Origin: Clostridiales bacterium
GTDB taxonomy: Bacteria; Bacillota; Clostridia; Christensenellales; CAG-138
Direction: 5' to 3'
Assembly (NCBI GenBank): GCA_012838425.1
Contig: DUPG01000008.1
Coordinates: 84,042-148,041 of the forward strand
Length of the DNA: 64,000 nucleotides
Part shown: piece after piece, positions 11,433-15,895 of the stretch
How the letters are laid out: every line of letters begins with the position of its first letter
Position numbering within the stretch: position 1 is the first letter of the stretch
The notes under the pieces: generated by a model
What the model saw: the letters and a program-made list of their open reading frames with translations, nothing else
The model's database searches: none
Told to the model about the DNA's origin: nothing
Made by a program: the position numbers and the translations under genes

Positions 11433-11468
11433 TCATTATTGGTGAAAAAATCAGGTAAAAAAGAATTA

Positions 11469-11491
11469 GTGGGGAGTACTTCCCACTTTTT
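11469..11491 (+). terminator. Rho-independent terminator after the Lys/Gln-rich ORFs
   Basis: GTGGGGAGTACTTCCCAC forms a near-perfect stem and is followed directly by TTTTT. It closes the two-gene unit 36 bases after its last stop. Confidence 0.8.
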
Positions 11492-11769
11492 CGTGCGCTA
11501 TTTGCTTAAAGCGAATTATACTCTAACTTTATGGCAAATTGGCTAATTATTTCACATAAAAATTATTTGTGCGATTTGGGCTAATCCGAAGCATAATATA
11601 CAAAATTTAAGCTAATTCTTTTCATTTGAAGCCATACATTGTGAAATGAATTACAAATTATAGTTTAATTATTTTAATCATGATGAAATTATTATAATAA
11701 TGCTAACAAAAATATTGCAATTTACTTTGCCAATGCGCAACCAAACAGTAAAATAAATTTTTGTAATGC
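11492..11769. other. Very AT-rich intergenic region
   Basis: About 280 bases with strikingly higher A+T than its surroundings and no credible ORF on either strand. GCTAAT recurs three times in similar context (near 11542, 11580 and 11611), and ATTTCACA / TGTGAAAT form an inverted pair about 90 bases apart. It lies upstream of a strong promoter for the pilin-like gene, so it may be a regulatory or UP-element region, but no known operator is recognised. Confidence 0.5.
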
Positions 11770-11798
11770 TTGACAGCTAAGATTTGTAAATTTATCAT
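11770..11798 (+). promoter_or_regulatory. Sigma-A promoter of the pilin-like gene
   Basis: TTGACA, exactly 17 bases, TATCAT; the preceding sequence is A/T-rich and could act as an UP element. The start codon at 11874 lies about 70 bases downstream of the expected transcription start. Confidence 0.75.
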
Positions 11799-11873
11799 AT
11801 TATTGTAATACAAAAGAAATGCAATTCTGCAAGAAGTAATAAGTAAATAATTTTGTCAAAAGGAGATGTCGAA

Positions 11874-12248
11874 ATGAAAAAGACAAACAAGCAAAAGGCG
11901 TTCACGATTGTAGAGTTGATTATCGTTATCGCGGTAATAGGCATACTTGCGGCGATACTCATACCTGCATTCACGAACATCATAGCGAAAGCCAATGCAA
12001 AATCTGCGCTATCTGATGCGCGCAATACTTTAACCTCTTTCTTAACAGAGAATTTAGAGATTGTTGATGGCGTAATAGCTAAGAGCATTGTAATTTTCGT
12101 TAAGAAAGCGAAAATGTACTATGTTTTCGGTTATCAGAACAATGGTCCCGATGCGGGCAAGCTGATGCAATCCGCCGGCAATCCCTTCAATTATGAAGAT
12201 CTAGCCGAGTTGATTGATGACTACAATTGTCCCGACTATGACATATAG
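11874..12248 (+). CDS. Type IV pilin-like protein, N-terminal part (frameshifted from the following GLUG ORF)
   Basis: The ORF track uses a TTG at 11853, but AAGGAGAT stands 8 bases before the ATG at 11874, giving MKKTNKQKAFTIVEL. This is a type III (prepilin) signal: basic leader, then FTIVELIIVIAVIGILAAILIPAF, with Glu at +5. The residue before the cleavage site is Ala rather than the usual Gly. The reading frame ends at TAG (12246). In the -1 frame an open reading frame runs without a stop from 12242 straight into the large ORF starting at 12335, so this looks like the 5' piece of one gene. No pilus assembly or prepilin peptidase gene is in the window. Confidence 0.7.
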   Translation: MKKTNKQKAFTIVELIIVIAVIGILAAILIPAFTNIIAKANAKSALSDARNTLTSFLTENLEIVDGVIAKSIVIFVKKAKMYYVFGYQNNGPDAGKLMQSAGNPFNYEDLAELIDDYNCPDYDI

Positions 12249-12334
12249 GCACAGAGGAAGAAACCAACTATGCGTTCTTCCTGTGGCCTCATGACCAGCC
12301 CTCAGGCTCAGGCTCTGGTATTAAATCAGGCGGA

Positions 12335-13858
12335 ATGGAAGAAATCAATCAAAGCTTCATCAATCTAACAGAGAGAATTAAGGGCGCACCTGAAACCGCA
12401 CAGGTATTCGATGGCTTCTTAATAGGAATGATTGTTGACGCAGGCGTACACAATCCCGGCGGCAGCGGCACAACCCCCGGTGATGACAACCCAAGTGGTC
12501 CTACCATTGTGCCTACGGAGGAGCCTGAGCCTACGGAAGAACCCGTATCAATCGACATTTCTGTAAAGTTCTATGATACTTGGAACGAAGAATTGTTCGA
12601 AACAAAGACTCTCACAGTTGATGAGACAGGCACTCAAACCATTACAAAGGAAATGGTACAGTCAATCGCTTCAGCCGAATTCACAATTGCAACAGATGAA
12701 GTAATAGTAGATGTTCAAGAGGACAGCAATATTGAAATTACATTTGAGGGTACCCGCGACAGAACTATTGAAGGTGAGCTGTTCAGAGTAATAACCAACG
12801 CTACAGGACTTAAAAAGATTGACAGCCAGGTTGACGTTAATGGCGCAACTTCTATGGACGCAAAATATATACTTAACAACAACATTACCTCCGGCATGGC
12901 AAATTGGAAACCATTAGGATGGGTAAGAACCGATGATAACGGCAATCCGATTTCAATAGGCGATGTACGATTCAACGGTATTTTCGACGGGGGTAATTAT
13001 CAAATAAGCGGTTTGTCAATGAGTTGGACTGCTTCTAGTGGCAATCAGTATGTCGGTTTGTTTGCCAGGATTGATACCTCAGGGGTTATAAGGAATCTAA
13101 AAATATTGCTGACAGATACAATAACAGCTTATAATTTCGCTGGTGTTATCGCAGGACGAAACCATGGCACGATATCAAATGTGCATGTAACAAATGGTGC
13201 GCCTGGAGAAAACATTGGTATTATTCAGACAACTACTACTATTGGTGGTACTGGAAACAATGCAGGTGGTATAGTTGCTGAAAATTCTGGAGGTCTCATT
13301 GAAAAATGTTCCACCTGTCTTTATAGCATTAATGGTGCATATGCTGCGGGTGGTATTACAGGAAGCAATGTAGCAGGCGGTGTTATTGATCAATGCTGGT
13401 CATATAGCGGTATAAACAATACAGGTACATATGCATTAACTGCTGTCCGTGTTGGAGGAATTGTAGGGCATAATGTTGCAATAAGTGTAAGCATGTCGAA
13501 TTGTATAGCAATGCCTTTATATCCTATACGCGGAAATCAATACCTTGGCTTGCTTGTTGGATATGCAAGTAATAGTAATACAATAATTACTAACTGCTAT
13601 GGAGTTGACAACGGAAATGTTACGCCAAGCGGCGACAATCCGACAAATATAGGTGCGGCTATTGGCGGTCAAGGCAGCACTGCGCCTACAGTAACAGGTT
13701 GCTATGTAGTATCAAGCAGAAGTGATAGCTTTTTCACGGTTTTCGCTAATGAAAGCCAGCTTATCGCGCAATCACCCTCATTCGGTTGGGATACGAATAT
13801 TTGGATTATCGATGGTTCATCATTGCCAAGGTTAAGGAACAACCCGTTCCCGGCGTAA
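12335..13858 (+). CDS. GLUG-repeat surface protein, 3' part of a frameshifted pilin-like gene
   Basis: The ATG at 12335 has no Shine-Dalgarno sequence at a normal distance, and the frame stays open upstream to 12242, encoding GTEEETNYAFFLWPHDQ and a Ser/Gly linker. It therefore reads as the continuation of the pilin-like ORF after a one-base indel. The visible 507 residues contain a linker rich in Thr/Pro/Glu (VPTEEPEPTEEP), a domain beginning FYDTWNEE, then repeats with GLUG-like motifs (YVGLFARIDTSGVIRNLKI, GVIAGRNHGTISNVHV, GGIVAENSGGLIEKC, GGITGSNVAGG, GGIVGHN). GLUG repeats form beta-solenoids in adhesins and secreted proteins. There is no LPXTG anchor at the C-terminus. The same FYDTWNEE domain recurs in the next ORF. 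Confidence 0.7.
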   Translation: MEEINQSFINLTERIKGAPETAQVFDGFLIGMIVDAGVHNPGGSGTTPGDDNPSGPTIVPTEEPEPTEEPVSIDISVKFYDTWNEELFETKTLTVDETGTQTITKEMVQSIASAEFTIATDEVIVDVQEDSNIEITFEGTRDRTIEGELFRVITNATGLKKIDSQVDVNGATSMDAKYILNNNITSGMANWKPLGWVRTDDNGNPISIGDVRFNGIFDGGNYQISGLSMSWTASSGNQYVGLFARIDTSGVIRNLKILLTDTITAYNFAGVIAGRNHGTISNVHVTNGAPGENIGIIQTTTTIGGTGNNAGGIVAENSGGLIEKCSTCLYSINGAYAAGGITGSNVAGGVIDQCWSYSGINNTGTYALTAVRVGGIVGHNVAISVSMSNCIAMPLYPIRGNQYLGLLVGYASNSNTIITNCYGVDNGNVTPSGDNPTNIGAAIGGQGSTAPTVTGCYVVSSRSDSFFTVFANESQLIAQSPSFGWDTNIWIIDGSSLPRLRNNPFPA

Positions 13859-13864
13859 TAAAAA

Positions 13865-13886
13865 GGGCGGCATTTGCCTGCCGCCC
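13865..13886 (+). terminator. Hairpin after the first GLUG gene
   Basis: GGGCGGCA-TTTGCC-TGCCGCCC, an 8-bp perfect GC-rich stem, 6 bases after the stop. The U tract is poor (TCGCCTT), so it may be an inefficient or processing hairpin. Confidence 0.6.
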
Positions 13887-14072
13887 TCGCCTTATACATA
13901 AGACAAGCCGTTAAAAAAGCACTTAAATTGAATGTAAGGGGGTAAGTGGCAAACAATAGCTTTTTTCACAAAGTTATATAGCTGCAGATATATAGCAATG
14001 TGCTAAAAGCAGTTGAATAAACCACAAACCGCTTGCAGATATAAAATACTATTTTGAAAGTAGAAAAAGAAC

Positions 14073-14240
14073 ATGAAACGGACAAGCATTATTAAGGCGC
14101 TATCGCTTCTAATAGCGATAGCAATGGCACTTATGCCAATGGCAGGAATTAGCGCGCTGGCAAATGGAAACGAGTTTACAATTACCTATGAGTTCGACCC
14201 CGACTTCCCTGAGTTAGGCGAAACTCTTGACTTCCCGTAA
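14073..14240 (+). CDS. Secretory signal-peptide fragment of the second GLUG protein (ends at in-frame TAA)
   Basis: This 55-residue ORF is absent from the track. It encodes a canonical signal peptide (MKRTSIIKALSLLIAIAMAL...AGISALA) followed by a short mature stretch ending at TAA 14238-14240. The next ORF (from 14262) is in exactly the same frame, with only ERQTEDG between the stop and its TTG codon. The most economical reading is a single secreted protein gene broken by one nonsense codon. The upstream RBS is weak (an A/G-rich stretch). Confidence 0.65.
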   Translation: MKRTSIIKALSLLIAIAMALMPMAGISALANGNEFTITYEFDPDFPELGETLDFP

Positions 14241-14261
14241 GAAAGGCAAACGGAAGATGGA

Positions 14262-15710
14262 TTGCATTATGTAGTAGATATTGAAGATTTAATTGGAGGG
14301 CCATTACCTGAGGGTTACACCTTCCACTATTGGGTAGACTCTTACGAAACTGCGTATTACCCTAGTTTTACCATCGATTATGACACTACCCTCACAGCTG
14401 TCGTTACCTACACTCCGCCAGAACCCGATACTATTACAGTTGATGTTTCCTTCTATGACACATGGAACGAAGAGACTATCACGGAATATGAGGTCGAAGT
14501 GCCTGCTGGCGGTACAGTAACTGCTGAAGATGTTTTGGCAGTTGCACCAGAATTATGGGTATCTACAACGCAACAAGTAACTGATGTTGAGGAGTACGAC
14601 AACATAACCTTTTACGGTTCAAGGTTGGCTCAACCCGATGGCGACGACTATGTAACATATACAAACGGAACACGCTATCAGGTAATCACAACGGTTACAG
14701 GCTTCCTAAAGATTGACGATACTTTGGCAGGCTTACAAGACAACTACTTGCAGTATAATGATTTGAACCTTACAGGCATAACTACAAACACTGTTTATGG
14801 CTTAGGAACATTTACATATGTATGCACCATTGGCGGCTATGGCGTAAACAGCTTAGAGTTCAGCGGAATATACGATGGCGGCATGCATGAGATAACAGGT
14901 TTTGGCGGTCAGCCTTGGGGTTCAAACGATACTTGCGTCGGATTGTTCAGTTACAATACAGGTACTATTAAAAACATTAACTTAACAATCGGAACACTGA
15001 AAGGCGCAGCAGAAGTTGGCGGTGTTGTTGGTTGGAATGCTGGTGCGATAGAAAATGTGCATGTCACAATCAACAACAGAATCGAAGCATACAGGTATGT
15101 AAACTATGGCATCAATGTATCCAGCGTTGGCGGAATATGTGGTGTCATGACAAGTCCCGGCTCAATTGTAAATTGTAGTGTAAAATGTAATGGCACTGCT
15201 CTAATCAAGACATATCAAAACTATGGCGGTGGCGGCGGAATATGCGGCGTTGCATTGAGCAACACATCAATTAGCTTGAGCTGGTTTAACGGAAGATTGA
15301 ATTCCGAGTATGCATATAGCTATGGCGGCAACTACATCGGCGGTATAGTTGGCTACCTGAATACAAACTCAACTGTTTCTAACTGCTGGGCATTCGTACA
15401 GGATATCCATGGCTATGACTATTTGGGTGGTATCGCTGGTTACAACAAGGGCACACTTACAGCTTGCTGGGCATATATCCTTGATGCTACAGGATATTAT
15501 TCTGATAGCGCAGGAAGCATAGTAACATCTTGGGGTAACTTAGGCACAGTAACCTACTGCTATAAAGAAACTGCGGATGCTACAGGCGGTGAGGGCGTTG
15601 GTACTAACACCGTATTCGGCGGCACAACTCCTTTAGCAGGCTTCGATACAAGCATTTGGGAGTTTGAAGAAGGTTACTTCCCTGGCATCATGTCAAACCC
15701 CTCGCGTTAA
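14262..15710 (+). CDS. GLUG-repeat secreted protein, main part (interrupted by in-frame TAA)
   Basis: The 482-residue frame has no signal peptide of its own; that is encoded in the same frame at 14073-14240, before a TAA. The start at TTG 14262 is only the first possible start after the stop, with a weak GGAAG before it. Residues about 60-150 repeat the domain found in the previous GLUG protein (FYDTWNEE, DVEEYDNITFYGSR, YQVITTVTGFLKID). GLUG-type repeats follow (CVGLFSYNTGTIKNINLTIG, VGGVVGWNAGAIENVHV, GGICGV, IGGIVGYLN, LGGIAGYNKGTLTACW). There is no sorting signal at the C-terminus, so it may be released or bound non-covalently. If TAA is real, the full protein is made only by readthrough or reinitiation. 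Confidence 0.7.
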   Translation: MHYVVDIEDLIGGPLPEGYTFHYWVDSYETAYYPSFTIDYDTTLTAVVTYTPPEPDTITVDVSFYDTWNEETITEYEVEVPAGGTVTAEDVLAVAPELWVSTTQQVTDVEEYDNITFYGSRLAQPDGDDYVTYTNGTRYQVITTVTGFLKIDDTLAGLQDNYLQYNDLNLTGITTNTVYGLGTFTYVCTIGGYGVNSLEFSGIYDGGMHEITGFGGQPWGSNDTCVGLFSYNTGTIKNINLTIGTLKGAAEVGGVVGWNAGAIENVHVTINNRIEAYRYVNYGINVSSVGGICGVMTSPGSIVNCSVKCNGTALIKTYQNYGGGGGICGVALSNTSISLSWFNGRLNSEYAYSYGGNYIGGIVGYLNTNSTVSNCWAFVQDIHGYDYLGGIAGYNKGTLTACWAYILDATGYYSDSAGSIVTSWGNLGTVTYCYKETADATGGEGVGTNTVFGGTTPLAGFDTSIWEFEEGYFPGIMSNPSR

Positions 15711-15845
15711 GCAAAAAACCAGCAGTATTGGCTTTGTTGATTTAGTATAATTTTGTAGCAATCTGAGAGCCTTTTCGAGAGTAAGCCTTTACTAAATTCA
15801 TATTAGGAGGAAACTTTCACCTCTTGCATTAGGCATATGCAAAGC

Positions 15846-15868
15846 AAAGTGGGAGAAATCCCACTTTT
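15846..15868. terminator. Bidirectional terminator between convergent genes
   Basis: AAAGTGGGA-GAAA-TCCCACTTT is a perfect 9-bp stem with a GNRA-type tetraloop, A-rich on one side and T-rich on the other, located between the plus-strand GLUG gene and the minus-strand YugP-like gene. Confidence 0.75.
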
Positions 15869-15895
15869 CGCTGTAAAGAATATGAGATTCACCTC

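What the first reader, a model, noticed from the sequence alone, without database searches (positions are those of the whole stretch)
14073..15710. Second GLUG-repeat secreted protein is split by an in-frame TAA right after its signal peptide
An ORF missing from the track (14073-14240) encodes a classical signal peptide and about 25 mature residues, then TAA; the following 482-residue ORF is in the same frame with only seven codons between the stop and its first possible start codon. The adjacent paralogue is also broken, by a frameshift near its N-terminal part. Two neighbouring surface genes each disrupted early suggests either recent decay under selection against display, phase-variable silencing, or a local assembly-quality problem.
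Basis: partly seen in the sequence, partly recalled or inferred. Interest (0 to 1): 0.65.

Follow-up and report, generated by a model that had tools for sequence, protein, structure and literature searches.

The report
Stop-interrupted secreted GLUG surface gene
A gene for a secreted, adhesin-like repeat protein in a Clostridia genome is cut by a stop codon just after its export signal; it looks like one of several recently silenced members of a large family of surface genes in this genome, an ordinary kind of gene decay that still needs read-level confirmation.

Summary
ATG 14073 opens a signal-peptide ORF that ends at TAA 14238-14240. The same frame then stays open to 15710, with seven codons before the only early start (TTG 14262). 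The two halves were probably one protein: the stop falls inside a divergent Listeria-Bacteroides (Flg_new) repeat, and the downstream half has no signal peptide and no ATG for 214 codons.

Recoding is not supported: TAA ends 29 of 55 window genes, RF1 and RF2 are both present, and no suppressor tRNA was found among 43 tRNAs. The lesion is not in a repeat, so slippage phase variation is not supported at this site. The gene sits in a 4.5 kb two-gene island absent from the syntenic site of the sister species.

Early lesions recur in this surface family: a frameshift in the neighbouring pilin-GLUG gene, an amber codon in another, a frameshift at an A7 tract in a third, and a 5'-truncated remnant. 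About 170 other coding segments in the same regions gave one candidate lesion.

Best reading: a recent null allele of an accessory secreted-protein gene. A consensus error of the metagenome-like assembly is not excluded, because no reads or second strain were available.

The parts
14073..14240 (+). Signal-peptide ORF (55 aa) ending in the in-frame TAA at 14238-14240; weak Shine-Dalgarno pairing (-2.1 kcal/mol)
14238..14240 (+). Premature TAA, codon 56 of 546, inside a divergent Flg_new repeat; no homopolymer of 6 or more in the gene
14241..15710 (+). Rest of the same reading frame: second part of the Flg_new-like repeat, a conserved 'FYDTWNEE' region, and a GLUG beta-solenoid; first start codon TTG 14262, first ATG 214 codons in
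14175..14399 (+). Flg_new-like repeat (read-through residues 35-109) interrupted by the stop
11874..12248 (+). Neighbouring paralogue, N-terminal part: type IV pilin-like (prepilin N-terminal motif), frame ends early at TAG 12246-12248
12242..13858 (+). Neighbouring paralogue, remainder in another frame (GLUG repeats); one-nucleotide frameshift near 12238-12250 relative to six paralogues
11434..15895 (.). Two-gene island between the ABC transporter locus and the yugP-like peptidase; absent from the syntenic site of sister species G001 (about 390 nt instead of 4.46 kb)

Best explanation
14073-15710 was one gene for a Sec-secreted protein with an Flg_new-like repeat and a GLUG beta-solenoid, probably a binding or adhesin-like protein (function inferred). 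A recent nonsense lesion at codon 56 makes translation stop about 25 residues after the signal peptide, so the protein is not made or displayed in the genotype that was assembled. It is a null allele in an accessory gene family (pilin-GLUG fusions and Sec-type GLUG/Flg_new proteins) whose members are often broken or missing. Shown: the stop, the continuous frame, other broken members, the empty site in the sister species. Inferred: that the lesion is a real mutation, that it is recent, and that it abolishes the protein.
For: The repeat profile spans the stop. No further stop or frameshift in the remaining 489 codons and a strong coding signal point to a recent event. The downstream half lacks an export signal and has only a weakly placed TTG. 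Other early-broken members: neighbour frameshift, TAG at codon 102 of the C28 gene where six paralogues have a sense codon, C20 gene with no in-frame start because of a shift at an A7 tract, 5'-less remnant on C29. In 196 coding segments scanned mechanically, 4 of 5 probable lesions fell in the family, which holds about a quarter of the codons (binomial about 0.013). ABC ATPase control: 25 matches, none with a stop. Sister species: empty site, and its orthologue of another member, 82% identical, has an in-frame TGA 61 codons before its end. Precedent for such decay: Campylobacter autotransporters (PMC7168839).
Against: No reads and no second strain of the species were available, so a consensus error cannot be excluded. 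Several paralogues lie at contig ends, showing that the family is hard to assemble. The enrichment figure rests on few lesions, sorted by eye, in regions chosen around family genes.
Confidence: 0.72

Rival explanations
1. The TAA is a consensus or strain-mixture error of the metagenome-like assembly; living cells carry an intact gene.
For: The genome has 35 contigs and 94.8% completeness and looks like a metagenome bin. Family members are often cut by contig ends. The sister genome, also fragmented, shows a frameshift and a TGA in homologues.
Against: Lesions are rare in other genes of the same stretches and absent from 25 ABC ATPase matches. The stop is a substitution-type lesion outside any repeat or homopolymer. 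The window lesions and the C28 lesion lie well inside long contigs.
Confidence: 0.18
2. ON/OFF variation: part of the population carries an intact allele and the gene is switched by mutation, as contingency loci are.
For: Several members are off by a single early lesion with the rest intact. One paralogue (C20) is off by a shift at an A7 tract next to its start, like the 5' poly(A) tract of Listeria inlA (PMC2831843).
Against: At 14238-14240 no homopolymer or other switchable element was found; the neighbour's frameshift is not in a repeat either.
Confidence: 0.06
3. The stop is read through or recoded, so a full-length protein is made.
For: Frame and coding signal continue after the stop. Stops of all three kinds occur in the family across the two species.
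Against: TAA is the commonest terminator (29 of 55 window genes). Both release factors are present. No suppressor tRNA among 43 tRNAs. Three different stop codons argue against reassignment of one codon.
Confidence: 0.03
4. Two separate genes: a small secreted peptide and a cytoplasmic 482-residue protein starting at TTG 14262.
For: Both ORFs have possible start codons.
Against: The stop divides one repeat domain. The TTG has weak ribosome-binding potential (-4.2 kcal/mol), and the Sec-type paralogues carry signal peptides.
Confidence: 0.01

Closest known systems
GLUG-motif (PF07581) / InlB B-repeat (PF09479, Flg_new) secreted proteins of Bacillota
   Same: Signal peptide, GLUG repeats at the cut-off when scored place by place, Flg_new-like repeat, predicted beta-solenoid
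   Different: Flg_new repeat too divergent for Pfam itself; no dockerin or anchor seen, unlike several paralogues; broken by TAA
Lineage-specific decay of surface genes, e.g. Campylobacter capC/capD autotransporters (PMC7168839)
   Same: Accessory surface family with intact and inactive copies, broken by premature stops and frameshifts
   Different: Different protein class and phylum; one assembly here, so no lineage association could be tested
Listeria inlA 5' poly(A) inactivation (PMC2831843)
   Same: Early truncation of a surface protein; applies to the C20 pilin-GLUG paralogue with an A7 tract
   Different: The focus gene has no homopolymer at its lesion
Solenoid structures of PDB 3n6z (Bacteroides ovatus putative IgA1 protease) and IgA1 proteases 7uvl, 6xja
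   Same: Best fold matches of the solenoid model
   Different: Weak match (E about 1e-3, rmsd 6.9, 16% identity); no protease domain detected in the focus protein

Membership tests
GLUG-motif secreted protein | GLUG repeats (PF07581) over the curated cut-off | tested here: met
   Two places in the downstream half score 21.1 and 21.0 against 20.5; the whole-protein scan gave 17.8, below cut-off, so only just met
GLUG-motif secreted protein | Sec signal peptide | tested here: inconclusive
   Typical signal peptide by eye in 14073-14162; no signal-peptide predictor was available
Flg_new / InlB B-repeat protein | PF09479 repeat over cut-off | tested here: not met
   No Pfam hit; only a profile from this genome's own repeats finds it
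Pseudogene / null allele | Frame-breaking lesion relative to intact homologues | tested here: met
   In-frame TAA inside a repeat domain; Sec-type paralogues uninterrupted at the N-terminus except one remnant
Pseudogene / null allele | Lesion present in the living population | not testable with these tools
   No reads; one genome per species is held
Phase-variable (contingency) locus | Simple repeat at the lesion | tested here: not met
   No homopolymer of 6 or more within either window gene; no repeat at the lesions
Phase-variable (contingency) locus | ON and OFF alleles in one population | not testable with these tools
   No reads and no second strain
Stop-codon recoding | Suppressor tRNA or missing release factor | tested here: not met
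   RF1 and RF2 present; 43 tRNAs, no suppressor anticodon; genome about 95% complete

The most novel reading that the evidence does not exclude
A large family of giant pilin-GLUG fusions and secreted GLUG proteins in this clade is kept as a store of adhesins in which any member is frequently silenced early by ordinary point lesions (and by an A7 tract in at least one), with ON and OFF alleles coexisting in the population.
Probability: 0.12. Interest if true: 0.5.

Novelty: new member of a known kind. Interest (0 to 1): 0.3.

Why it matters
Automatic annotation would list a 482-residue protein without export signal that is really the remains of a secreted one. The small genome carries about two dozen large pilin- or Sec-exported repeat proteins, several of them broken. 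If the lesions are real and polymorphic, the family marks surface variation in an uncultured Clostridia lineage. The single stop codon is ordinary.

Tried and rejected
Codon reassignment and suppressor tRNA: no support. Slippage phase variation at the stop: no tract. Terminal direct repeats at the island edges: none convincing. A structure model of the read-through protein: the solenoid is reasonable (mostly pLDDT 70-90 over about residues 290-475), but the region with the stop is below 50 and was not used as evidence. Polarity of the island, gain or loss: only one syntenic relative, so not decidable. Comparison with other strains of the species: the collections hold one genome per species, and a contig search found only a distant homologue. 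A first version of the lesion scan gave mostly false flags because it preferred spurious internal starts; it was replaced. Literature searches for GLUG-pilin fusions or for this kind of lesion in such genes found nothing direct.

Full report
Check of the observation. The sequence is as described: a 55-residue ORF from ATG 14073 with a signal peptide, TAA at 14238-14240, then 489 open codons in the same frame to 15710, the first possible start being TTG 14262. The downstream half contains no ATG for 214 codons.

One gene, not two. A profile of 27 Flg_new repeats from this genome matches the read-through segment with 17.6 bits (envelope residues 35-109), above all of 999 shuffles (best 14.4). 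The first strand (FTITYE) lies before the stop and the conserved core (EGYTFHYW ... TLTA) after it. Most of the score comes from the part after the stop, so the link to the first strand is supported by position and length rather than by score. Pfam's own model does not see it. The downstream half carries GLUG repeats at the cut-off and models as a beta-solenoid with a weak match to an IgA1 protease-like solenoid.

The neighbour. 11874-13858 is a type IV pilin-like N-terminus joined to GLUG repeats. Against six paralogues at DNA level it has a one-nucleotide frameshift near 12238-12250, not in a repeat. It is a different export class from the focus gene.

The family. The genome has 24 prepilin-motif hits, 58 Flg_new hits and 59 GLUG hits. 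Members with early lesions, besides the two in the window: a pilin-GLUG gene on C28 with an in-frame TAG at codon 102; a pilin-GLUG gene on C20 whose well-placed ATG is out of frame with the pilin motif because of a shift at an A7 tract, the only one of the prepilin-motif genes inspected with no in-frame start; and a 5'-truncated remnant on C29. A mechanical scan for coding segments without a plausible start tested 196 segments (68,017 codons) and gave nine flags. Four were judged by eye to be normal starts or spurious prefixes; the other five are the focus gene, its neighbour, C20, C29 and one lipoprotein outside the family (L061). Four of five in a family holding about a quarter of the codons gives a binomial value near 0.013. 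This is suggestive, not strong: numbers are small, sorting was by eye, regions were chosen around the family, and the window case was the reason for looking. The amber case was found by inspection and is not in that count. As a control, 25 ABC ATPase matches in the genome show no internal stop.

Sister species. In G001 (same genus) the ABC transporter and the yugP-like gene are syntenic at about 75% DNA identity, but only about 390 nt lie between them: the two-gene island is absent. Gain and loss cannot be told apart. G001's orthologue of an intact member (82% identity over 630 residues) carries an in-frame TGA 61 codons before its end, and its best homologue of the focus gene appears frameshifted. 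So single lesions in otherwise intact members are seen in two species, with all three stop codons involved.

Recoding. Both release factors are present, 43 tRNAs include no suppressor anticodon, and TAA ends 29 of 55 window genes. Reading through TAA is therefore unlikely.

Mechanism, shown and inferred. Shown: the ribosome meets TAA at codon 56, and the remainder has no ATG nearby, a weak TTG context and no export signal. Inferred: only a short secreted peptide of about 25 residues, if anything, is made, and the solenoid is not exported. The absence of any second lesion in 489 codons suggests that the event is young.

Verdict. The simplest account is a recent null allele of an accessory secreted GLUG protein (about 0.72). 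Assembly or strain-mixture error is the main rival (about 0.18), and only reads or other strains can settle it. Decay of surface genes by stops and frameshifts is known (PMC7168839), and early poly(A) inactivation is known for Listeria inlA (PMC2831843), which resembles the C20 paralogue but not the focus gene.

Noticed in passing
L024:1996-2110 (G000:C20): Pilin-GLUG gene of 692 open codons has no in-frame start; a strong Shine-Dalgarno and ATG lie just upstream, out of frame across an A7 tract. Candidate phase-variable start.
   Followed up: partly
L064:3237-6041 (G000:C28): Pilin-GLUG-Flg_new gene interrupted by an in-frame TAG at codon 102, where six paralogues have a sense codon.
   Followed up: yes
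L022, L023, L060, L057, L066 and others: Many type IV pilin-like N-termini fused directly to very large GLUG/Flg_new repeat regions (up to 1342 open codons), one next to a PilT-like gene; the literature searches made here found nothing describing such fusions.
   Followed up: partly
L065, L070, L071, L072, L073: Several Sec-type GLUG/Flg_new proteins end in dockerin-like repeats (PF00404 hit in L065); the focus protein does not.
   Followed up: no
L061:867-1771 (G000:C25:46866-47770): Lipoprotein gene that appears split by a frameshift; the only candidate lesion found outside the surface family.
   Followed up: partly
L073:2760-2990 (G000:C29): Dense short inverted repeats (REP-like) just upstream of a 5'-truncated GLUG/Flg_new/dockerin remnant.
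   Followed up: no
L134:2427-2811 (G001:C178): The empty site in the sister species holds short GC-rich inverted and direct repeats between the ABC transporter and the yugP-like gene.
   Followed up: no
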